A stretch of 64,000 nucleotides of DNA. It comes from Planomonospora sp. ID67723. Lineage in GTDB: Bacteria; Actinomycetota; Actinomycetes; Streptosporangiales; Streptosporangiaceae. Every line of letters begins with the position of its first letter. The stretch's first letter is position 1. The notes under the pieces were generated by a model. That model saw only the letters and a list, made by a program, of their open reading frames with translations. It had not been told where the DNA came from and searched no databases. Shown here in pieces: positions 4,903 through 58,749 of the stretch. The DNA lies in contig NZ_JABTEZ010000003.1 in NCBI RefSeq assembly GCF_015711605.1, positions 682,001 through 746,000 on the forward strand, read 5' to 3'. The position numbers and the translations under genes were made by a program.

Positions 4903-5211
4903 GACAGCCAACCGTACCCGCTCGCCCCGACAACGAGGCGCCGTCCGCGCACGAATCCGGGATCCCGGCCGCTTGACGTGGCCGGGCCGGGGCATGCTCT
5001 CCGGAGGGTTACCGAGCGGACGCGTCGCGGCGTTCCGGAGCCTCGCACCCGTCTTCCGTGGCACACTGGCGAGACCACCCAGCCACACCGCCGTAAGAGG
5101 CCGACAACGGACCTCCCCGTGGTGTTCCTGGGGCGGAAGATGGGGACGTTAGGGCCGATTCGGTAGGGTTTCCCGAGGTCGAGTGGACGAATAAAGGCTG
5201 GTTAGAGGACT
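4903..5211. other. Divergent intergenic region between the helicase gene and the 5212 gene
   Basis: About 309 nt between two divergently transcribed genes. It should hold both promoters, but no convincing pair of -35/-10 boxes is visible. TACGGT on the minus strand (4911-4916) is 8 nt from the helicase GTG, and TAGGGT at 5164-5169 is a weak candidate -10 for the rightward gene. If the helicase really starts at ATG 4995, the left third of this stretch is coding. Confidence 0.4.
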
Positions 5212-40736: not shown

Positions 40737-40859
40737 AGGGCTGATCGGCCGGCGGGGGCCGGCCGGCGGGCCTTCCGGCGGTCCGGCTGGAAGGAGGGCC
40801 TCCTACCAGCGGAAACAAGGAATATGTGGGTATGGCCCGAATTTGTCGGCGGGGTTGGT

Positions 40860-40872
40860 TAGCGTTCGGCGC
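40860..40872 (+). promoter_or_regulatory. Leaderless-type -10 element heading the SWIM-MoxR operon
   Basis: TAGCGT (40860-40865) is followed by 7 nt and the GTG at 40873. It fixes the first gene's start and suggests that the whole five-gene operon begins with a leaderless message. Confidence 0.55.
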
Positions 40873-42150
40873 GTGATCGAACGGTGGAACCGGGATCAGG
40901 TCCTCGCGCTCGCGCCCGACGCCTCGTCCCAGAAAGCGGCCCAAGGAGTGTCGTCTCCCGGCAAGTGGTCGAATGCCGGCGTCGCCGCCGAGGCGGTGTG
41001 GGGAGAGTGCAAGGGCAGCGGCTCCAAGCCCTACCGGGCATGCGTGGACCTGTCCGAACCCGCCTACCGGTGCAGTTGCCCGAGCCGGAAGTTCCCCTGC
41101 AAGCACGCCCTCGGCCTGCTGCTGCTGTGGTCGGCCGACGGCGTCCCGGGAGCGGACGAGCCCGCCGACTGGGTGGCCGAGTGGCTCGACCAGCGCCGCG
41201 CCCGCGCCGCCAAACCCGCCGCGGCGCCCCGCACGGCGGAGCCCGGCGCGGCGCCCGACCCCCGGCGGGCCGAGCAGCGCGAGCAGCGGGTCGCGGCGGG
41301 GCTGGCGGAGCTGGAGCGCTGGCTGGCTGACCAGATGCGGCAGGGCATCGCCGGCTCGCGCCGCCACGACCACTGGGACGGCCTGGTCAAACGCCTGGTC
41401 GACGCCCAGGCTCCCGGCGTCGCCGGGACCGTCTCCCGCCTCGGCGCCGTCCTGTCCGACGACGACTGGCCCGCCCGCCTGCTGTCCGAGTACTCCCTCC
41501 TGCACCTCCTGCTCACCGCCCACCGCCGCGAGGCGCTGACGCCGACCGTGCGGGGACGGGTCGGGTTCCCCGTCACCAAGGAGGAGGTGCTCTCCGGAGA
41601 GACCGTCCGTGACGTGTGGGACGTGCTGGGGCGGCGGGACGAGGAGCAGGACCGGCTGATCTCGCGGCGGGTCTGGCTGCGCGGCAGGGCGACCGGCCGG
41701 GCCGCGCTCGTGCTCTCCTTCGCCCCCACCGGCCAGGCCCTCGACGCCTCGCTCGTCACCGGCACGGCTCTGGACGCCGAGCTGGCGTTCTACCCCGGCA
41801 CGGCCCCGCTGCGCGCCCTGGTCGCGACCCGCCACGCCGCCGCCCCCGCCGCCCCGCCGCCCGGCTCCCCGCCGGAGGCGGTGCTGGAGGAGGTGGCCGC
41901 GGCCCTGGCGGGCGATCCCTGGACGGACTCCTGGCCGGTGGTCCTCGACGCGGTGACCCCGATGAGGAACGGCTCATGGCTGCTGGGCGGCCCGTCCGGC
42001 GGGCTTCCGCTGCACCCGTCGGCGGGAACCCCCTGGCGGCTGGTCGCCGCCTCCGGCGGGCACCCGCTGACCGTCGCCGCCGAATGGACCCCCTGGGGCC
42101 TGCGGCCCCTGTCGACCTGGGACGAGGAAGGCCGGGTGGTAGTGCTGTGA
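40873..42150 (+). CDS. SWIM zinc finger protein (YehQ-like)
   Basis: First gene of the MoxR-VWA operon; 425 residues. A SWIM motif CxCxnCxH is at Cys67, Cys69, Cys76 and His78 (YRCSCPSRKFPCKHALG), a fold that binds DNA or protein. The rest is an alpha-rich region of about 340 residues without known motifs, ending with two beta-rich segments. GTG 40873 is chosen from the hexamer TAGCGT at 7 nt; an upstream GTG frame exists but lacks a ribosome site. Its TGA overlaps the next gene's GTG by 4 nt. In E. coli yehQ, a SWIM gene, lies beside the YehL-type MoxR genes. Confidence 0.85.
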   Translation: MIERWNRDQVLALAPDASSQKAAQGVSSPGKWSNAGVAAEAVWGECKGSGSKPYRACVDLSEPAYRCSCPSRKFPCKHALGLLLLWSADGVPGADEPADWVAEWLDQRRARAAKPAAAPRTAEPGAAPDPRRAEQREQRVAAGLAELERWLADQMRQGIAGSRRHDHWDGLVKRLVDAQAPGVAGTVSRLGAVLSDDDWPARLLSEYSLLHLLLTAHRREALTPTVRGRVGFPVTKEEVLSGETVRDVWDVLGRRDEEQDRLISRRVWLRGRATGRAALVLSFAPTGQALDASLVTGTALDAELAFYPGTAPLRALVATRHAAAPAAPPPGSPPEAVLEEVAAALAGDPWTDSWPVVLDAVTPMRNGSWLLGGPSGGLPLHPSAGTPWRLVAASGGHPLTVAAEWTPWGLRPLSTWDEEGRVVVL

Positions 42151-43583
42151 GCGGAACCCCGCAGAACACCGGGACAGGCCCCATGGCGGACACCATGACC
42201 GCGTGGGAGGACCTCGTCTCCACCGCGCTCGTCGGCACCGACCGCAGGCCGCTGCCGGCCGGCCCCGGCGATCCCGCGGCCGAACTGCTCGAACGGGCCG
42301 CCGTGCAGACCGTCCGCGCCCGCGCCGGACAGCGGCTCCGCGCCGGAAGACCGCTGGATGTCGCCCCGCCCGAGGAGCAGCCCGCGCTCCCGCGCGCCGC
42401 GGGCGACAGGCTGGCCCGGATCCTCGGCGGCGAGCGGCCGAGGCTGCTCGCCGAGTGGCTCCAGACCGCCGCGGGCCGCGGTTACCGGCTCTCCCCGCAC
42501 CTGCTGCCCGAGCTGCTCGACCACGCCGCCCGCGACCGCTCGATCCGCCCGCACCTCGGCGTCCTCGCGGGACGCCGGGGCCGCTGGCTGGCCGGGCTCA
42601 ACCCGACGTGGAGCTTCCTCAGCCAGGAGGCCACCGCGGCCGGGCCCCGCCCGGAGGTGTGGGAACTGGGCACCTCGGGAGACCGCCGCGCCCACCTGGC
42701 CGCGCTGCGGGCCGCCGACCCCGCGGCCGCCCGCGAACTGCTCGCGACGACATGGGAGAAGGAGAGCCCCGAGGACCGGGCGGCCTTCCTGGAGCTGTTC
42801 GCCGAGGGGCTCTCCCTCGACGACGAGCCGTTCCTGGAGGCCGCGCTCGACGACCGCCGTCGCGAGGTCCGGCACGAGGCCGCCGACCTGCTCACCCGGT
42901 TGCCGGACTCCCGCCTCGGACGGCGGATGGCCGAACGGGTCGCGGACCGCTTCACAGTGCTGGGCGGCAAGATCCTCGTCAACCCGCCCAGCGCCTGCGA
43001 CGCCGCCATGGAGCGCGACGGCGTGCGGGCCAAGCCGCCCCAGGGCACCGGTGAGAAGAGCTGGTGGCTCCAGCAGATCGTGGCCCGCACCCCGCTCGGC
43101 GTCTGGAGCGAGCTGCTCGGCCGGCCGCCCCGCGAGCTCGTCCGGATGAAGATCACAGACTGGGGGCGGGAGGTCCTGGCCGGATGGGTCAGGGCGGCCG
43201 TGCTCCAGGGCGACCCCGAGTGGGCGCGTGAGCTGTTCGCCTCCGACCCGCTGGCCGACCTGCTGGCCGTACTGCCCCGCGACGAGCAGGAGAGCGCGGC
43301 CGCCGCCTTCGTCCGCGGCCACGCCCTGGACGGCCAGCTCATCATGGTCCTCGGAGGCGCCGCGGCCCCGTGGGGCCCGGAGCTCGCCCGGGCCGTCCTC
43401 CAGAGGATCCTCGACTTCTCCCGGACCCAGCCGTGGAACATCGGCGAGCTGGGCAAGCTGGCCGGCGAACGCGTCGACCCCGCCCTGTACGGCCTGGCGG
43501 AACGCTTTTCCCTCGAACCGCCCATCCAGGAGGTCGCCGCCCTCCTGCGTTTCCGTGACGACATGCTGAAGGAGCTGCAATGA
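42147..43583 (+). CDS. DUF5691-type helical protein of the MoxR operon
   Basis: A 478-residue soluble, Leu/Arg/Glu-rich protein with repeated helical pairs, HEAT-like in places (DERPFLEAALDDRRREV pattern, only partly quoted). By recollection it matches the DUF5691 family found with SWIM and MoxR genes; that name should be checked. It starts at GTG 42147, overlapping the SWIM gene stop (GTGA), and its stop overlaps the MoxR ATG (ATGA). The tight coupling suggests a fixed-stoichiometry complex. No enzymatic motif is visible. Confidence 0.75.
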   Translation: MSGTPQNTGTGPMADTMTAWEDLVSTALVGTDRRPLPAGPGDPAAELLERAAVQTVRARAGQRLRAGRPLDVAPPEEQPALPRAAGDRLARILGGERPRLLAEWLQTAAGRGYRLSPHLLPELLDHAARDRSIRPHLGVLAGRRGRWLAGLNPTWSFLSQEATAAGPRPEVWELGTSGDRRAHLAALRAADPAAARELLATTWEKESPEDRAAFLELFAEGLSLDDEPFLEAALDDRRREVRHEAADLLTRLPDSRLGRRMAERVADRFTVLGGKILVNPPSACDAAMERDGVRAKPPQGTGEKSWWLQQIVARTPLGVWSELLGRPPRELVRMKITDWGREVLAGWVRAAVLQGDPEWARELFASDPLADLLAVLPRDEQESAAAAFVRGHALDGQLIMVLGGAAAPWGPELARAVLQRILDFSRTQPWNIGELGKLAGERVDPALYGLAERFSLEPPIQEVAALLRFRDDMLKELQ

Positions 43584-44647
43584 CGACGGTGCTTCGCGCC
43601 CACGCCGAGGACCAGTACGCCGAGGAACTGGAGCTCCTCGCCAAGGACGACGACCGGACCAGGCCGCCGGGCTGGAAGCTCTCGCCGTGGGCGGTGACCA
43701 CCTACATCCTGGGCGACGGCGACCGGATCACCCCCAAGTACATCGGCCCCCGCCGCATCGTCGAGGTCGCCGTGGCGACGCTGGCCACCGACCGGGCGCT
43801 GCTGCTGCTCGGCGTGCCCGGCACGGCCAAGACCTGGCTCTCGGAGCACCTGGCCGCCGCGATCAGCGGCGACTCCACCCTGCTCGTGCAGGGCACGGCG
43901 GGCACCGCGGAGGAGGCCGTCCGCTACGGCTGGAACTACGCCCGGCTGCTGGCCGAGGGACCGTCCCGGGAGGCGCTCACCCCGAGCCCGGTGATGCGCG
44001 CGATGGCCGAGGGCCGTCTCGCCCGGGTCGAGGAGCTGACCCGCATGCCCTCCGACGTGCAGGACGCCCTGATCACCGTCCTGTCGGAGAAGACGCTGCC
44101 GATCCCCGAGCTGAACGAGGAGGTCCAGGCGGCGCGCGGGTTCAACCTCATCGCCACCGCCAACGACCGCGACCGGGGCGTCAACGACCTGTCCAGCGCG
44201 CTGCGCCGCCGCTTCAACACCGTCGTGCTCCCGGTGCCGGGCACCCCGGAGGAGGAGGTGGACATCGTCTCCCGCCGGGTGGAGCAGCTCGGCCGCTCGC
44301 TGGAGCTTCCGGAGGTCCCGGCCGGGATGGAGGAGATCCGCCGCGTCGTCACGGTCTTCCGCGAGCTGCGGACCGGCGTCACCGAGGACGGCCGCACCAA
44401 GGTCAAGTCACCCAGCGGCACGCTGAGCACCGCCGAGGCCATCTCCGTGATCACCAACGGCGTCGCGCTGGCCGCGCACTTCGGCGACGGCGTGCTGCGC
44501 CCCTCCGACGTGGCCGCCGGGATCATCGGCGCCGTGGTCCAGGACCCGGTCTCCGACCGCGTCGTCTGGCGGGAGTACCTCGAGACCGTCGTGCGCGAAC
44601 GCGAGGACTGGCGCGACTTCTACCGGGCCTGCCGTGACGCGGGCTGA
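43580..44647 (+). CDS. MoxR-family AAA+ ATPase (YehL-type)
   Basis: A 355-residue AAA+ protein. Walker A is GVPGTAKT (residues 78-85), Walker B lies around LARVEELTRMP, the sensor region is NLIATANDRDRGVNDLSSAL and RRRFNTVVLPVPG is the arginine-finger part. The long N-terminal helix (residues 1-60) and the C-terminal lid are typical of the YehL group of MoxR ATPases. MoxR proteins work with VWA partners as chaperones for metal or complex assembly. It overlaps the previous gene by 4 nt, and a 111-nt gap follows. Confidence 0.9.
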   Translation: MTTVLRAHAEDQYAEELELLAKDDDRTRPPGWKLSPWAVTTYILGDGDRITPKYIGPRRIVEVAVATLATDRALLLLGVPGTAKTWLSEHLAAAISGDSTLLVQGTAGTAEEAVRYGWNYARLLAEGPSREALTPSPVMRAMAEGRLARVEELTRMPSDVQDALITVLSEKTLPIPELNEEVQAARGFNLIATANDRDRGVNDLSSALRRRFNTVVLPVPGTPEEEVDIVSRRVEQLGRSLELPEVPAGMEEIRRVVTVFRELRTGVTEDGRTKVKSPSGTLSTAEAISVITNGVALAAHFGDGVLRPSDVAAGIIGAVVQDPVSDRVVWREYLETVVREREDWRDFYRACRDAG

Positions 44648-44758
44648 GCCGGAGCACGCCCCGGCCGTGACCGCGATCCGCCCCCGGCGCGCCGGGCGGC
44701 GGGCGGTCCCCGGCCGCTTCACCGAACCCCCCGGCCGCACCACGAAAGGAGGCAGGCG

Positions 44759-47116
44759 ATGAGCGTGTCCGTTCTCGGCGTCCGGCACCACGGGCCCGGC
44801 TCGGCGCGGGCCCTGCGCGCGGAGCTGGAACGCCTCAAGCCGGACGTCGTGCTCATCGAGGGCCCGCCCGAGGCCGACGAGCTCGTCGCCCTGGCGAAGG
44901 ACCCGGATCTCCAGCCACCGGTGGCGCTGCTGGCGCACGTGCCCGGCGAGCCGTCCAAGGCCGCGTTCTGGCCGTTCGCCGTCTTCTCACCCGAGTGGCA
45001 GGCGATCCGCTACGCCGCCGAGGAGAGCGTGCCGGTCCGCTTCTGCGACCTGCCCGCCGCGCACGGTCTCGCCACCCGGCCGCAGGCGCCGGACGGACCG
45101 GCGGGCGACGGGGCGCGGGCCGTACGGATCGACCCGATCGGGGAGCTCGCCCGCGCCGCCGGATACGACGATCCGGAACGGTGGTGGGAGGACGCGGTCG
45201 AGCACCGCGGCGACACCCCGTTCCAGGTGATCGCCGAGGCGATGGCCGCGGTCCGCGAGGGGTACGTCCCGGACGAGCACGAGGCGCGGCGCGAGGCGTT
45301 CATGCGCCGCACGATCCGCAGGGCGGTCAAGGACGGCTTCGAGCGGGTCGCCGTGGTCTGCGGCGCCTGGCACGTCCCCGCCCTGACCGGGCCGGCCGGC
45401 TCCGGCGGATCGCCGTCCGCGCGGGCCTGGGGCGCGGGGCTGCCGCCGGCCAAGTCGGACGACGCACTGCTCAAGGGCCTGCCCAAGGCCAAGGTGGAGC
45501 TGACCTGGGTGCCGTGGACCTACGGGCGGCTGGCCGCCTGGAGCGGCTACGGCGCGGGCGTGACCTCCCCCGGCTGGTACCACCATCTGTTCGCCTCCCC
45601 CGACCGGCCGGTGCAGCGCTGGCTGACCGCGGCCGCGGGGATGCTGCGGGCCGAGGACCTGCCGGTCTCCTCCGCGCACGTCATCGAGGCGGTACGGCTG
45701 GCGGAGTCGCTGGCGGTGCTGCGGGGACGGCCGCTGGCCGGGCTCGCGGAGGTCACCGAGGCGGTCAGGGCGGTCCTGTGCGAGGGCGACGACCTGCCGG
45801 TGGAGCTGGTCCAGCGGCACATGGTCGTGGGGGAGCGGCTCGGGCAGGTGCCCGACACCACCCCGATGGTCCCGCTCCAGCGTCACCTGCGCGAGGAGCA
45901 GCGGCGGCTCAAGCTCAAGCCGGAGGCCCTGGACCGCGAACTCGACCTCGACCTGCGCAAGCCCCTGGACCTGGGACGCAGTCACCTGCTGCACCGCCTG
46001 CGCCTGCTCGGTGTCGGCTGGGGGGTGCCGCAGCAGAGCCGGGGAAAGGGCACCTTCCGCGAGTCGTGGACGCTCGCCTGGCGCCCCGAGTTCGACATCG
46101 ACCTGATCGAGGCGAGCGCCTGGGGGACCACCGTCCCGGCGGCGGCCGCCGCCCGCGTCCGCGACCTCACGCAGGGCGGCACGGCCGGCCAGGGCCGGTC
46201 CGGGGCACCGGCCTCGGGATCCCGCCCTCCCGGCGGACCCGCGACTCCCGGCGCGGCCGGGGCGGGAGGCCCCGGCGGGGTCTCGCTCGCCGACCTCACG
46301 GGGCTGGTGGAGCACTGCCTGCTGGCCGACCTGCCGGACGCGCTGCCGTACGTGCTGGAGGCGCTGTCGGCGCGGGCGGCGCTGGACAGCGACGTCACGC
46401 ACCTGATGGCGGCGCTGCCCGCGATGGTCCGGGCCCAGCGCTACGGCGACGTGCGCGGCACGCCCGCCACCGGACTGACCGCCATCGTCGACGCCCTGCT
46501 CACCCGGGTCTGCGTCGGCCTGGGCGGGGCGGTCACCGGCCTGGACGACGACGCCGCCCGCGATCTGCTCGGGCACGTGGACGCGGTGCACGCCGCCGTC
46601 GGCCTGCTCGACTCCGGCGACGCCCCCGGTGAGGAGTCGCCGAAGGGGCGCTGGCTGGCCGCGCTGCGCGCGGTGTCGGGCCGGTCGGACCTGCACGGGC
46701 TGATCGAGGGGCGGATCGTCAGGATCCTGCTGGACTCCGGGGATCTCGACACCGGCCGCGCCGAGCGGCGGATGGCGCGGGCGATGTCGGCCGGGCATCC
46801 ACCGGCCAGGGCCGCGGCCTGGGTCGAGGGGTTCGTCTCCGGAGGCGGGCTGCTGCTGGTGCACGACGCGCGGCTGCTCGGGCTGATCGACGCATGGCTG
46901 ACCGGGCTGGCCCCGGAGGCGTTCGTGGACGTGCTGCCCCTGCTCCGGCGGACCTTCGGCGCCTTCGCCGCCCCGGAGCGCCGCGCGATCGGAGAACGGG
47001 CCCGCGCACTCGGCACCGGTGAGGCCGCCGCCGCGGCCGTGGCCGACGACATCGACGATCAGCGCGCGGCGGCGGCCGTACGGACCGTGCTGGAGATCCT
47101 TGGGAGGGCGTCGTGA
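44759..47116 (+). CDS. DUF5682-type protein, possible TIKI/EreA-superfamily hydrolase
   Basis: A 785-residue soluble protein. Its start (VLGVRHHGPGS, then DVVLIEGPPEA with Glu34) and a later element VVCGAWHVPAL (His205) match the two GxxH-type motifs and the Glu of the TraB/TIKI/EreA/ChaN superfamily, so a metal-dependent hydrolase is plausible. The rest is helical with a Gly/Pro/Ala-rich linker around residues 470-510. ATG 44759 has AAAGGAGG 6 nt upstream. Its stop overlaps the GTG of the VWA gene. It corresponds to YehM-like genes of E. coli by context. Confidence 0.82.
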   Translation: MSVSVLGVRHHGPGSARALRAELERLKPDVVLIEGPPEADELVALAKDPDLQPPVALLAHVPGEPSKAAFWPFAVFSPEWQAIRYAAEESVPVRFCDLPAAHGLATRPQAPDGPAGDGARAVRIDPIGELARAAGYDDPERWWEDAVEHRGDTPFQVIAEAMAAVREGYVPDEHEARREAFMRRTIRRAVKDGFERVAVVCGAWHVPALTGPAGSGGSPSARAWGAGLPPAKSDDALLKGLPKAKVELTWVPWTYGRLAAWSGYGAGVTSPGWYHHLFASPDRPVQRWLTAAAGMLRAEDLPVSSAHVIEAVRLAESLAVLRGRPLAGLAEVTEAVRAVLCEGDDLPVELVQRHMVVGERLGQVPDTTPMVPLQRHLREEQRRLKLKPEALDRELDLDLRKPLDLGRSHLLHRLRLLGVGWGVPQQSRGKGTFRESWTLAWRPEFDIDLIEASAWGTTVPAAAAARVRDLTQGGTAGQGRSGAPASGSRPPGGPATPGAAGAGGPGGVSLADLTGLVEHCLLADLPDALPYVLEALSARAALDSDVTHLMAALPAMVRAQRYGDVRGTPATGLTAIVDALLTRVCVGLGGAVTGLDDDAARDLLGHVDAVHAAVGLLDSGDAPGEESPKGRWLAALRAVSGRSDLHGLIEGRIVRILLDSGDLDTGRAERRMARAMSAGHPPARAAAWVEGFVSGGGLLLVHDARLLGLIDAWLTGLAPEAFVDVLPLLRRTFGAFAAPERRAIGERARALGTGEAAAAAVADDIDDQRAAAAVRTVLEILGRAS

Positions 47117-48321
47117 CAGAGGCCGTGACGGGCGCCGTGACGGGCGGTGCGGCGGACGGGGAACGGCTGCGTCGCTGGCGGCTGGTGCTCGGCGGGGACG
47201 CCGACGGCACCGGGTGCGCGCTGGGCGGGACCGACGCCCAGATGGACGGCGCGCTGGCCGCGCTCTACAACAGCGGCGGCGGGGACGGTGGCAGGCCGTC
47301 GGGCCAGCGGAGTGCGGGACTCGGCGCCTCCGCGCCGCGGGTCGCACGCTGGCTGGGCGACATCAGGTCCTACTTCCCCTCGACCGTGGTCCAGGTGATG
47401 CAGAAGGACGCGGTCGAGCGGCTGAACCTGACCCGGCTGCTGCTGGAGCCGGAGATGCTGGAGGCGGTCGAGCCCGACGTGCACATGGTCGGCACGCTCC
47501 TGTCGCTCAACCGGGTCATGCCGGACAAGGCCCGGGAGTCGGCGCGCGCGCTGGTCGGCAAGGTCGTCGCCGAACTGGAGCGGCGGCTGGTCCAGAAGAC
47601 CAAGGCCGCGGTGACCGGCGCGCTGGACCGCTCGGCGCGCACCCACCGCCCCAAGCGGGTCGCCGACATCGACTGGGACCGGACGATCCGGGCCAACCTC
47701 AAGAACTACCTGCCCGAGAAGAACACCGTGATCCCCTCGCGGCTGGTCGGGTACGGCAGGCGCCAGCGGGCGGTCCAGCGCGAGGTGGTGCTCTGCATCG
47801 ACCAGAGCGGCTCGATGGCCGCCTCCGTCGTCTACTCCAGCGTCTTCGGCGCGGTGCTCGCCTCGATGCGTTCGCTGAAGACGTCGCTGGTGGTCTTCGA
47901 CACCTCGGTCGTCGACCTCACCGACCAGCTCCACGACCCGGTGGAGCTGTTGTTCGGCACCCAGCTCGGCGGCGGCACCGACATCAACCGGGCCATCGCC
48001 TACAGCCAAGGTCTGATCACCCGCCCCAGCGACTCCATCTTCATCCTGATCAGCGATCTGTACGAGGGCGGAGTCCGGCAGGAGATGCTCCGCCGGGTGG
48101 CTCAGATGACCGCGGCCGGAGTGCAGGTGATCGTGCTGCTGGCGCTGTCGGACGAGGGCGCGCCCTTCTACGACCGGGAGAACGCCGCCGCGCTCGCCGC
48201 GATGGGGGTGCCCGCCTTCGCCTGCACGCCCGACGCCTTCCCCGGCCTGATGGCCGCCGCGATCGAGCGCCGCGACATCGGCCAGTGGGCCGAGCGGCAT
48301 CTGGAGCGCTCGGCCGGCTGA
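47113..48321 (+). CDS. VWA domain protein of the MoxR operon
   Basis: A 402-residue protein with a von Willebrand A domain in its C-terminal half. The MIDAS motif is DQSGSM (Asp230, Ser232, Ser234), with the conserved Thr-Asp in LGGGTDINR and the last part in LISDLYEGG. The N-terminal 200 residues are helical. It is the expected partner of the MoxR ATPase, and together they resemble the CoxE/YehP-type VWA-MoxR pairs. GTG 47113 overlaps the previous TGA (GTGA). It ends the operon. Confidence 0.9.
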   Translation: MTEAVTGAVTGGAADGERLRRWRLVLGGDADGTGCALGGTDAQMDGALAALYNSGGGDGGRPSGQRSAGLGASAPRVARWLGDIRSYFPSTVVQVMQKDAVERLNLTRLLLEPEMLEAVEPDVHMVGTLLSLNRVMPDKARESARALVGKVVAELERRLVQKTKAAVTGALDRSARTHRPKRVADIDWDRTIRANLKNYLPEKNTVIPSRLVGYGRRQRAVQREVVLCIDQSGSMAASVVYSSVFGAVLASMRSLKTSLVVFDTSVVDLTDQLHDPVELLFGTQLGGGTDINRAIAYSQGLITRPSDSIFILISDLYEGGVRQEMLRRVAQMTAAGVQVIVLLALSDEGAPFYDRENAAALAAMGVPAFACTPDAFPGLMAAAIERRDIGQWAERHLERSAG

Positions 48322-48579
48322 ACCCGACCCAGCGCGGGCGGCACGGAGGCCCGCCCACGCCGGAACGGGACCGGCGGACGGTGAGGAAGAAGGGCGGACG
48401 CCTCCTCGGGCGGACTGTTTTCGAGGGGATTGCTGAGCGCAATACCTATTGCGCTCAGCAATCCCCTGGCAAGAGGAACCGTGGGGTTCCCGCGGCCGTG
48501 CGGCGAAACCCCGGGTTCCGCCGTGGCCTGCCGTTCGGCGGCCCGTTCAGTGCCCTTCGGCGCCCGTTCAGTGGCCCGT
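48322..48579. other. Spacer between convergent VWA and MFS genes
   Basis: 258 nt that hold a 20-bp perfect inverted repeat (48424-48467) and, near 48541-48582, three direct copies of CCCGTTCAGTG or close variants. No conserved coding frame is evident. Confidence 0.5.
48424..48467. terminator. 44-bp near-perfect palindrome
   Basis: Arms 48424-48443 and 48448-48467 pair perfectly over 20 bp around a 4-nt loop, and the innermost A-T bases could pair too. It lies between convergent genes, so it probably terminates both. The stem is less GC-rich than the other terminators in this window, which hints at another origin. Confidence 0.7.
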
Positions 48580-58562: not shown

Positions 58563-58736
58563 GCCGATCCGCTCCCCGATCGCCGTTCTGCCCGGTGCCG
58601 GTCATCCGTCCGAATCGTTTTCGCCAACCCTCTTTAGATCTTCAAGCCTACTCGGGGCAGGCGTTTTCCGGCATTCCGATATGACGCGGGCGAGAGCGGA
58701 GTGGTGAGAGTGGCAGCACTTGTCGCTGATGACTGT

Positions 58737-58749
58737 TAGCTTCAGGCGG
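58737..58749 (+). promoter_or_regulatory. Leaderless-type -10 element for sbcD
   Basis: TAGCTT (58737-58742) is followed by 7 nt and ATG 58750. Confidence 0.5.

What the first reader, a model, noticed from the sequence alone, without database searches (positions are those of the whole stretch)
40873..48321. Five-gene SWIM/DUF5691/MoxR/DUF5682/VWA operon, a YehL-type chaperone system of unknown purpose
Seen in sequence: SWIM finger (C67-C69-C76-H78), a large helical protein, a MoxR AAA+ ATPase, a 785-residue DUF5682-type protein and a VWA protein with intact MIDAS (D230/S232/S234). Three of the four junctions overlap by 4 nt, and the set begins with a leaderless promoter. Known: MoxR-VWA pairs act as assembly chaperones, and E. 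coli has a similar YehL/M/P/Q group without a defined function. Inference: a nucleic-acid-sensing (SWIM), ATP-driven machine that remodels or loads a hydrolase (DUF5682). A stress or conflict role is possible.
Basis: partly seen in the sequence, partly recalled or inferred. Interest (0 to 1): 0.75.

Follow-up and report, generated by a model that had tools for sequence, protein, structure and literature searches.

The report
DNA-damage-promoter operon with ATP-driven enzyme
This is a widely conserved but unstudied set of five bacterial genes that looks like an ATP-powered machine working on an enzyme of the TraB/TIKI kind, and in actinobacteria its promoter matches the switch that turns on genes after DNA damage, so its role can now be tested directly.

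Summary
The five genes are real and complete: SWIM-finger protein, DUF5691, YehL-type MoxR, DUF5682, CoxE-type VWA. The order recurs in five phyla. In 146 cyanobacteria the same 8 genomes hold DUF5682, DUF5691 (both over cut-off) and the SWIM-protein core, and 7 of them the VWA; in two genomes the genes are scattered over one chromosome. Natural fusions tie SWIM to DUF5691 and DUF5682 to VWA.

Two things are new. First, the DUF5682 N-terminal domain is a TraB-branch TIKI-superfamily domain (hhalign 93%, shuffles at most 2.3%; fold hits agree but weakly), so DUF5682 is probably a hydrolase. Second, the operon starts with the published RecA-independent DNA-damage promoter of actinobacteria (PafBC/P1, tTGTCRgtg-N8-TAnnnT): 71 of 91 actinobacterial loci, 0 of 10 others, 0 of 102-119 at each of the other four genes.

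Best reading: a DNA-damage-induced MoxR-VWA machine that remodels or feeds a TIKI-type hydrolase. The SWIM finger is dispensable, against a central sensing role. Activity, partners and induction are untested. No function was found in the held papers.

The parts
40843..40865 (+). Predicted PafBC/P1 (RecA-NDp) DNA-damage promoter: TTGTCGGCG-N8-TAGCGT, 7 nt before the GTG (leaderless geometry)
   Evidence: Matches the published consensus tTGTCRgtg-8nt-TannnT (passage); strict pattern in 71 of 91 actinobacterial loci; window site 40844-40865 by pattern search
40873..42150 (+). SWIM zinc-finger protein, 425 aa; the finger is dispensable, the C-terminal ~290 aa is the conserved core
   Evidence: Pfam SWIM 2.8e-6; finger CSCPSRKFPCKH; finger-less homologues
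41071..41106 (+). SWIM finger C67-x-C69-x6-C76-x-H78
   Evidence: 93 of 103 homologous ORFs have it
42147..43583 (+). DUF5691 protein, 478 aa, probably a helical (HEAT-like, inference) partner; fused to the SWIM protein in several species
   Evidence: Pfam 1e-145; fusions; sub-cut-off matches to other cyanobacterial ORFs lie at profile positions 157-243
43580..44647 (+). YehL-type MoxR AAA+ ATPase, 355 aa; Walker A GVPGTAKT; VEE where Walker B usually has DE (my reading)
   Evidence: AAA_5 8e-39; YehL 4e-75; PDB NorQ 2e-10, Midasin 4e-19
44759..47116 (+). DUF5682 protein, 785 aa: N-terminal TraB-branch TIKI-type domain (about residues 1-260) plus a C-terminal helical half
   Evidence: Pfam 2.5e-279; hhalign to TraB 93.1%; AF2 mean pLDDT 82.3 whole, 84.2 N-domain; Foldseek
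44759..45559 (+). TIKI-like domain: G7-V-R-H10-H11, E34, D97, R178-E179-A-F-M182, G202-A-W-H205 (protein numbering)
   Evidence: Homologues picked by homology alone: H10, E34, D97, R178, E179, G202 and H205 in 126 of 126, M182 in 125, H11 in 124, G7 in 117
47113..48321 (+). CoxE-type VWA protein, 402 aa, complete MIDAS (D230, S232, S234, T289, D315)
   Evidence: VWA_CoxE 1.6e-54; fused to DUF5682 in class-2 relatives
48424..48467 (.). Perfect 21-bp inverted repeat with 2-nt loop after the operon, before a convergent MFS gene; possible transcription end, not seen after the operon of the same-genus relative

Best explanation
The operon encodes one multi-protein machine. MoxR forms an ATPase ring and the VWA protein is its arm, gripping a partner peptide at its MIDAS. 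The partner they act on is DUF5682, whose N-terminal domain has the TraB-branch TIKI fold and probably hydrolyses a peptide or ester-like bond, with its helical half as the docking surface. The SWIM protein and DUF5691 form a second sub-complex that probably brings the machine to its target; the finger is an optional aid. In actinobacteria the set is switched on by DNA damage independently of LexA, through the PafBC/P1 promoter. Shown here: gene content, co-occurrence, fusions, domain relationship, promoter motif. Inferred: complex formation, ATP-driven delivery of a substrate to (or activation of) the hydrolase, induction by damage. Unknown: the substrate.
For: Co-inheritance: in 146 cyanobacteria DUF5682 and DUF5691 (over cut-off) and the SWIM-protein core are in the same 8, the VWA in 7 of the 8. 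YehL-type MoxR is in all 8 at 466 bits or more, against at most 33 bits in 12 genomes without the system (20 of 146 checked). In G045 and G109 the five genes are scattered. Actinomycetota, 296 genomes: all 18 with DUF5691 over cut-off are among the 21 with DUF5682. Fusions: SWIM::DUF5691 in 6 of 80 named loci (L081 checked by Pfam) and, without a Pfam finger, in Hymenobacter; DUF5682::VWA in three class-2 loci (two checked by Pfam). Enzyme: hhalign 93.1%, score 56.8, against 60 shuffles at most 23.5 and four decoys at most 19.6; candidate active-site residues in 126 of 126 homologues; structure hits 1, 2 and 4 are 'TraB family protein', 3, 6 and 7 are Bcr135 and ChaN, both called TIKI proteins in PMC6254334 (passages). 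Regulation: strict motif in 71 of 91 actinobacterial loci, 25 named genera; 0 of 10 non-actinobacterial; 0 of 102, 119, 118 and 114 at the other four genes; mononucleotide shuffles mean 0.24 of 101. MoxR-VWA mechanics: NorQD (PMC13036017, abstract and passages).
Against: Foldseek E-values are weak (best 0.02, none below 0.001). The first Glu of the 2His/2Glu site (E-x-H) is absent, as in the TraB sequences here, and no activity is known; some TIKI proteins are not enzymes. The TraB profile is small (11 sequences) and its rows were trimmed on a GxxH-type pattern. 20 of 91 actinobacterial loci lack the strict motif (8 of these have a relaxed form). 11 of 12 non-actinobacterial upstream regions tested show none of seven damage-type boxes (box patterns other than P1 recalled), so damage control may be an actinobacterial habit. 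The other 43 chance-type hits of the motif in the loci also lean to the unused consensus letters, though less (1.98 against 2.59 of 4). PafBC itself was not looked for in this genome, and no recA promoter control could be run. Loci are related and some repeat a species, so counts are not independent.
Confidence: 0.6

Rival explanations
1. Cofactor-insertion reading: MoxR and the VWA protein act as a metal or cofactor insertase, like NorQD for nitric oxide reductase or CoxDE for CO dehydrogenase, and DUF5682 is the client matured by them (or is itself a cofactor-handling TIKI protein like haem-binding ChaN).
For: The VWA protein is of the CoxE family and MoxR is nearest to Midasin and NorQ in the PDB. 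NorQD and CoxDE are described as serving metal insertion. The N-domain also matches ChaN by fold, weakly (E 0.77).
Against: Among the five genes DUF5682 is the only enzyme-like member, and no other gene was found to travel with the set across genera (12 largest neighbour clusters seen). TIKI proteins need not be metal enzymes (RRSP is metal-independent, passage).
Confidence: 0.3
2. Anti-phage or conflict system: the MoxR-VWA switch releases a toxic DUF5682 hydrolase on infection.
For: Related MoxR-VWA ternary systems are proposed to be conflict systems (PMC7159879, section 8); patchy presence in cyanobacteria (8 of 146).
Against: No PADLOC match; bpMoxR below its cut-off (24.4 of 27 bits); E. 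coli version in 5301 of 5426 genomes; one hit in 50,697 phage records, an unverified scaffold.
Confidence: 0.1
3. DUF5682 is a non-catalytic TIKI-fold scaffold; the machine only assembles or dismantles a protein complex.
For: E-x-H glutamate missing; the helical half is typical of scaffolds; PMT is a TIKI protein without the catalytic set (passage).
Against: H10, E34, R178 and H205 are unchanged in 126 of 126 homologues of three classes, including E. coli YehM, which is more than a scaffold needs.
Confidence: 0.2
4. The promoter motif is real but read by ClgR or another regulator, for instance in oxidative stress, and has little to do with DNA damage.
For: A passage in PMC5656591 says ClgR also recognises P1; PafBC also controls oxidative-stress genes (passage).
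Against: The motif was defined from LexA-independent DNA-damage genes, and PafBC is named as its regulator (passages).
Confidence: 0.15

Closest known systems
E. coli yehI-yehL-yehM-yehP-yehQ
   Same: YehL, YehM and YehP are homologues of MoxR, DUF5682 and VWA in the same order; a SWIM-finger protein is present; function unknown.
   Different: DUF4132 protein YehI in place of DUF5691; YehQ lies downstream and shows no detectable relation to the SWIM protein outside the finger (hhalign 0.4%); no PafBC-type site upstream of yehI or yehL.
NorQ-NorD (MoxR-VWA metal insertion)
   Same: MoxR ATPase with VWA partner; NorQ is a PDB relative of the MoxR protein (2e-10).
   Different: Client is a nitric oxide reductase; the TIKI-type protein, SWIM protein and DUF5691 are not part of the nor cluster described there.
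TraB family / TIKI superfamily (TraB, Ere, ChaN, RRSP)
   Same: GX2H, Glu after strand 2, Arg on the helix before the second GX2H, profile match, best structure hits.
   Different: Attached to a long helical half and to a MoxR-VWA pair; E-x-H glutamate absent; no activity known.
vWA-MoxR-VMAP / iSTAND ternary conflict systems
   Same: MoxR + VWA + third component.
   Different: Third component is a TIKI-type protein; no VMAP match of weight (one of 30 DUF5682 proteins hits VMAP-M8 at E 0.048); bpMoxR below cut-off; one DUF5682 gene in this genome.
PafBC / RecA-NDp regulon of mycobacteria
   Same: Promoter motif and spacing.
   Different: In the passages seen of three PafBC papers these genes are not named as members. 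One lists a 'von Willebrand factor' protein, MSMEG_5511, lowered 1.6-fold without pafBC; whether it is of this family was not tested.

Membership tests
YehL-type MoxR-VWA system | MoxR-clade AAA+ ATPase of the YehL type | tested here: met
   AAA_5 8e-39; YehL 4e-75
YehL-type MoxR-VWA system | VWA partner with complete MIDAS | tested here: met
   D230-S232-S234, T289, D315
YehL-type MoxR-VWA system | DUF5682 (YehM) partner next to it | tested here: met
YehL-type MoxR-VWA system | Hexameric ring, ATPase activity, MoxR-VWA binding | not testable with these tools
   needs purified proteins
TIKI superfamily, TraB branch | Two GX2H motifs and a Glu at the end of strand 2 | tested here: met
   GVRH10, E34, GAWH205; H10, E34, G202, H205 in 126 of 126 homologues, G7 in 117 (Pro in 8, Ser in 1)
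TIKI superfamily, TraB branch | Basic residue on the helix before the second GX2H | tested here: met
   R178 in 126 of 126, 27 residues before H205; RRSP R4001/H4030 are 29 apart
TIKI superfamily, TraB branch | Sequence-profile relationship to TraB | tested here: met
   hhalign 93.1%, 225 columns; reversed 0.0%, 60 shuffles at most 2.3%
[quoted passage not shown]
   Six of the first seven Foldseek hits are TraB, Bcr135 (Ere) or ChaN chains, but best E is 0.02; coordinates could not be inspected
2His/2Glu TIKI peptidases and esterases (RRSP/Ere type) | First glutamate of the catalytic set (E-x-H) | tested here: not met
   V8 in that place (sequence); so not filed in this catalytic subgroup
PafBC/P1 (RecA-NDp) regulon | Promoter tTGTCRgtg-N8-TannnT upstream of the first gene | tested here: met
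   40843-40865; 71 of 91 actinobacterial loci
PafBC/P1 (RecA-NDp) regulon | PafBC present; PafBC-dependent induction by DNA damage | not tested
MoxR-VWA ternary conflict systems | VMAP, iSTAND or beta-propeller third component, bpMoxR over cut-off | tested here: not met
SWIM-dependent nucleic-acid sensor | SWIM finger conserved wherever the system occurs | tested here: not met
   absent in 10 of 103 ORFs (2 cut by contig ends) and in 3 cyanobacteria

The most novel reading that the evidence does not exclude
The operon is a DNA-damage-induced, ATP-driven protease of a new architecture: MoxR-VWA pulls on proteins stuck on or cross-linked to damaged DNA and feeds them to the TIKI-type DUF5682 hydrolase, with the SWIM/DUF5691 sub-complex as the adaptor to DNA or to the blocked protein. 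It would be a bacterial counterpart of the eukaryotic DNA-protein cross-link proteases that work with an AAA+ unfoldase (recalled).
Probability: 0.12. Interest if true: 0.92.

Novelty: new variant of a known kind. Interest (0 to 1): 0.75.

Why it matters
YehL is an old branch of the MoxR ATPases without a known job (recalled), and its E. coli genes are in nearly every E. coli genome (5301 of 5426), yet I found no function for them in the held papers. Two leads make the question testable: a probable enzyme (DUF5682 as a TraB/TIKI-type domain) with named residues to change, and a probable condition (DNA damage through PafBC in actinobacteria). If right, the LexA-independent damage response of actinobacteria includes an ATP-driven remodelling machine that has not been looked at.

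Tried and rejected
Whole-model Foldseek of DUF5682 gave nothing below 0.001; most listed hits are helical-repeat proteins, so the N-domain was folded alone. Pfam at E up to 10 on 30 DUF5682 proteins shows no TraB match: the link needs profile-profile comparison. Ere as comparison profile gave only 3.8%, but the accepted TraB-Ere pair itself gives 0.2%. Class-2 N-domains alone (3 sequences) gave 79.8% to TraB over 32 columns; class-3 alone (6 sequences) 0.7%. DUF5691 and SWIM-family profiles against YehI, YehQ and unknown partners of class 2, class 3, Fusobacterium and L175 (11 proteins): no relation except the Fusobacterium SWIM protein, 99.3%. PDB sequence searches with DUF5682, DUF5691, SWIM and VWA found no solved relative. 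Conserved neighbours beyond the five genes: the five largest clusters are in 19 of 80 loci each, their representatives from Streptomyces; one looks like succinyl-CoA synthetase beta (my reading) (12 clusters seen). E. coli-type sigma-70 scan: none. Damage-type boxes upstream of 12 non-actinobacterial genes: none but an RDRM-like site in Deinococcus (12 of 17 letters of a consensus I recalled, joint best in 20 kb, 36 nt before the first gene): suggestive only. A recA promoter control in Nonomuraea was tried; its record was not among the 60 listed of 346.

Counts told in full; 28 loci from relatives = 18 class 1 (16 with all five in order, L043 without a SWIM hit, L059 cut by its contig), 3 class 2, 7 class 3. 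80 named loci: 46 five in order on one strand; 16 with SWIM and DUF5691 on the other strand; 6 fused; 12 others, most of them cut by contig ends; below the family cut-offs there was also 1 DUF5682 match (G097) and 7 further genomes with DUF5691 matches, and 1 weak VWA match with stops (G123); 3 further genomes with DUF5691 matches below cut-off; 3 of the 21 DUF5682 genomes (G310, G390, G445) lack DUF5691; 30 of 101 without the strict motif, 20 of these actinobacterial. Some loci are the same species (L037 and L060 look like one contig by length); 71 sites are 66 distinct sequences. Genus count from 57 of 75 named actinobacterial loci (names typed). TraB profile: 11 of 15 candidates (14 loci and YbaP); L178, L179, L182 and L185 fell out because they did not fit the motif pattern used to find and trim the ORF. 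hhalign used 107 of the 119 DUF5682 N-domains. The 36 rows were chosen by a pattern that needs HH and G-x-W/F-H (37 of 39 wanted loci fitted, L042 was left out), so their invariance was rechecked without a pattern.

Full report
What is there. The window holds five complete genes on the + strand at the coordinates given: a 425-aa SWIM-finger protein, a 478-aa DUF5691 protein, a 355-aa MoxR ATPase, a 785-aa DUF5682 protein and a 402-aa CoxE-type VWA protein, each with a Pfam match over its cut-off. Finger, Walker A and MIDAS letters are present. Three junctions overlap by 4 nt; 111 nt separate MoxR from DUF5682. The neighbours are unrelated: an aldehyde dehydrogenase upstream and an MFS transporter downstream. 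The genome has a single DUF5682 match. No NCBIfam model reaches its cut-off and no PADLOC model matches.

It is one unit. Among 41 genomes of the wider kin 20 have DUF5682. Of 18 class-1 loci taken from them 16 have all five families in the same order on one strand; one lacks a SWIM hit and one is cut by its contig. Of 80 named loci, 46 show the five in order on one strand, 16 (Streptomyces and two allied genera) have SWIM and DUF5691 on the opposite strand, 6 have SWIM and DUF5691 fused, and 12 show partial sets, most of them cut by contig ends. The same order is annotated in Rhizobium, and in Deinococcus and Hymenobacter with a small extra gene between MoxR and DUF5682. In Methylosinus the VWA is broken into several frames. 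Methylobacterium has the order by homology search, and so do three cyanobacterial loci. In a sample of 146 cyanobacteria DUF5682 over cut-off occurs in 8 genomes, DUF5691 over cut-off in the same 8, the SWIM-protein core in the same 8, and the VWA in 7 of the 8 plus one weak match with stops. Below the cut-offs there are one more DUF5682 match and DUF5691 matches in seven more genomes. The missing VWA belongs to a draft genome whose contig ends inside DUF5682. YehL-type MoxR was checked in 20 of the 146: all 8 positives score 466 bits or more, the 12 negatives at most 33 bits. In G045 and G109 the five genes are scattered over one chromosome; the closest two, SWIM core and MoxR, are about 70 kb apart and the others further. 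So co-inheritance persists without linkage. In 296 actinobacterial genomes DUF5682 is in 21 and DUF5691 over cut-off in 18, all within the 21; three more have DUF5691 matches below cut-off.

Fusions. SWIM and DUF5691 are one chain in 6 of 80 named loci (L081 checked by Pfam). In Hymenobacter the SWIM-protein core, without a Pfam finger, is joined to DUF5691. In a second class of relatives DUF5682 and the VWA lie in one open frame of 1257 to 1418 codons beside a YehL-like MoxR (two of three checked by Pfam). This suggests two sub-complexes.

The enzyme. DUF5682 proteins share GVRHH near the N-terminus, a Glu ending the second strand, R-E-x-x-M on a helix and VCGAWH, which is the TraB layout. 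In 126 homologues picked by homology alone, YehM and all three classes included, H10, E34, D97, R178, E179, G202 and H205 are unchanged in 126; M182 in 125, H11 in 124 and G7 in 117. So of the two neighbouring histidines the one in the GX2H place is the fixed one. A profile of DUF5682 N-domains (107 of 119 used) against 11 TraB sequences gives hhalign 93.1%, score 56.8, over 225 columns; the reversed TraB profile gives 0.0%, 60 column shuffles at most 2.3% (score at most 23.5), and four decoy families at most 0.4%. AlphaFold2 gives mean pLDDT 82.3 for the whole protein and 84.2 for the N-domain. With the N-domain, Foldseek ranks 1, 2 and 4 are chains of a Tetrahymena protein (7w5z_E, 8bqs_DQ, 8b6h_DQ) that the PDB calls 'TraB family protein'; 3 and 6 are Bcr135 (3b55, 2rad) and 7 is ChaN (2g5g); rank 5 (6so5) and the later ones are others. 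The E-values are weak (0.02 to 0.77 for these), so I take this as agreement, not proof. In the RRSP paper (passages) TIKI enzymes use two His, two Glu and a nearby Arg. Here both His, one Glu and the Arg have counterparts with similar spacing; the first Glu (E-x-H) does not, as in the TraB sequences. A hydrolase is likely, not shown.

The machine. The MoxR protein is close to YehL and, in the PDB, to Midasin and NorQ. NorQD is described as an ATPase ring with a VWA finger in its pore and a MIDAS suggested to bind the target (abstract and passages). Section 8 of PMC7159879 gives the common theme: the VWA captures a substrate peptide and the ATPase changes the conformation of what is bound. With a TIKI-type partner in the complex, the simplest reading is that the pair either feeds or activates DUF5682.

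The SWIM finger is not the core. Of 103 homologous ORFs 93 carry it; 10 do not (2 of these cut by contig ends), and no intact finger was found in other frames upstream. In L042 an N-terminal stretch resembling the window's remains while the finger is gone. Three cyanobacterial homologues begin at residue 134 or later of the window protein and have no finger in the ORF or in any frame of the fetched stretch.

The promoter. Upstream of the SWIM start, Streptosporangiaceae loci share TTGTC(A/G)-N11-TA(N)3T at fixed distance. This is the published RecA-independent mycobacterial DNA-damage consensus tTGTCRgtg-8 nt-TannnT (passage of PMC5656591), whose regulator is PafBC and which extends to other Actinobacteria (passages). 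The strict pattern (TGTCR-N11-TANNNT) is within 150 nt upstream to 60 nt downstream of the homologous start in 71 of 101 loci: 71 of 91 actinobacterial, 0 of 10 others. At DUF5691, MoxR, DUF5682 and VWA it is in 0 of 102, 119, 118 and 114; these control stretches often lie in the preceding gene. Shuffled windows give a mean of 0.24 and at most 2 of 101. The four consensus letters not used in the search (t, gtg) are each the commonest letter at their place (mean 2.59 of 4); 40 other distinct hits in the same loci lean the same way less (1.98). 57 of 75 named actinobacterial loci, 25 genera, have it; six genera among the 75 have it in none. Eight of the 20 actinobacterial misses have a relaxed form. 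The hexamer ends 6 or 7 nt before the homologous start in 38 of 71, which fits a leaderless message. In six of six divergent loci examined a near match (-10 CANNNT) also precedes MoxR on its own strand. Class-3 relatives have the strict motif about 2.1 to 2.5 kb before the VWA homology in 5 of 7 loci, and one of three class-2 loci has it before its first gene. Of 12 non-actinobacterial upstream regions none shows a LexA-type or P1 box; Deinococcus has an RDRM-like site (box letters other than P1 recalled).

Compared with what is known. E. coli yehI-L-M-P-Q is the nearest named system: the triad is homologous, the partner proteins differ. It is in 5301 of 5426 E. coli genomes, at least 80% covered in 5162, which is unlike a mobile defence system. 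No paper in the held library names DUF5682 or DUF5691, holds MoxR, TraB and VWA together or the phrase SWIM zinc finger with MoxR. PMC10910872 mentions a SWIM domain and vWA-MoxR-VMAP systems near CRISPR loci, but not this set (passages). Two papers hold two or more of the yehLMPQ names (listing only); one search listed 30 of 693 papers with any yeh name, mostly unrelated words. The library lacks most subscription papers, so this is not proof of absence.

Verdict. A real, co-inherited, unstudied system: a YehL-type MoxR-VWA machine around a TraB/TIKI-type protein, with a DNA-damage promoter in actinobacteria. Architecture and co-inheritance are firm, the TIKI relationship strong, damage control in actinobacteria strong but without an expression test, and the biochemical task is open.

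Noticed in passing
L048, L050, L051: Second class of system: YehL-like MoxR beside one chain joining DUF5682 and a CoxE-type VWA, with a shared upstream protein (825 to 1674 aa) that matches no Pfam family.
   Followed up: partly
L052-L058: Third class: VWA, MoxR and a long DUF5682-like protein (HHSP and CGAFH motifs); strict PafBC/P1 motif about 2.1-2.5 kb before the VWA homology in 5 of 7.
   Followed up: partly
window 48424-48467: Perfect 21-bp inverted repeat with 2-nt loop (folding energy -40.5) between the operon and the MFS gene, not seen at the same place in the same-genus locus L034.
   Followed up: partly
L093, L100, L113, L119, L128, L139: Streptomyces: near-consensus P1 site (TGTCAGTG-N8-CANNNT) also on the MoxR strand of the divergent pair, 77-116 nt upstream.
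   Followed up: partly
L170 4744-4760: Deinococcus taeanensis: site resembling the radiation/desiccation response motif just before the SWIM gene.
   Followed up: partly
L172 11160-12385: Methylosinus trichosporium plasmid copy: the VWA gene is broken into several frames and is not in the gene table.
   Followed up: no
L175: 'Bacteriophage sp.' scaffold MT835988 (unverified) has MoxR-DUF5682-VWA and a DUF5717 protein; it may be a bacterial contig.
   Followed up: no
L174: E. coli conjugative plasmid carries the yehI-yehQ chromosomal stretch with btsSR and mlrA, with an IS26 transposase upstream.
   Followed up: no
window 4911-4932 (-) and 58721-58742 (+): Two further strict P1-motif matches in the window; not examined, may be chance (0.27 expected in the whole window).
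   Followed up: no
L177: Fusobacterium version has a SWIM protein, then a 638-aa protein without Pfam match where DUF5691 usually sits.
   Followed up: partly
PMC5656591 table: A Mycobacterium smegmatis VWA protein, MSMEG_5511, is listed as lowered without pafBC; not checked whether it belongs to this family.
   Followed up: no
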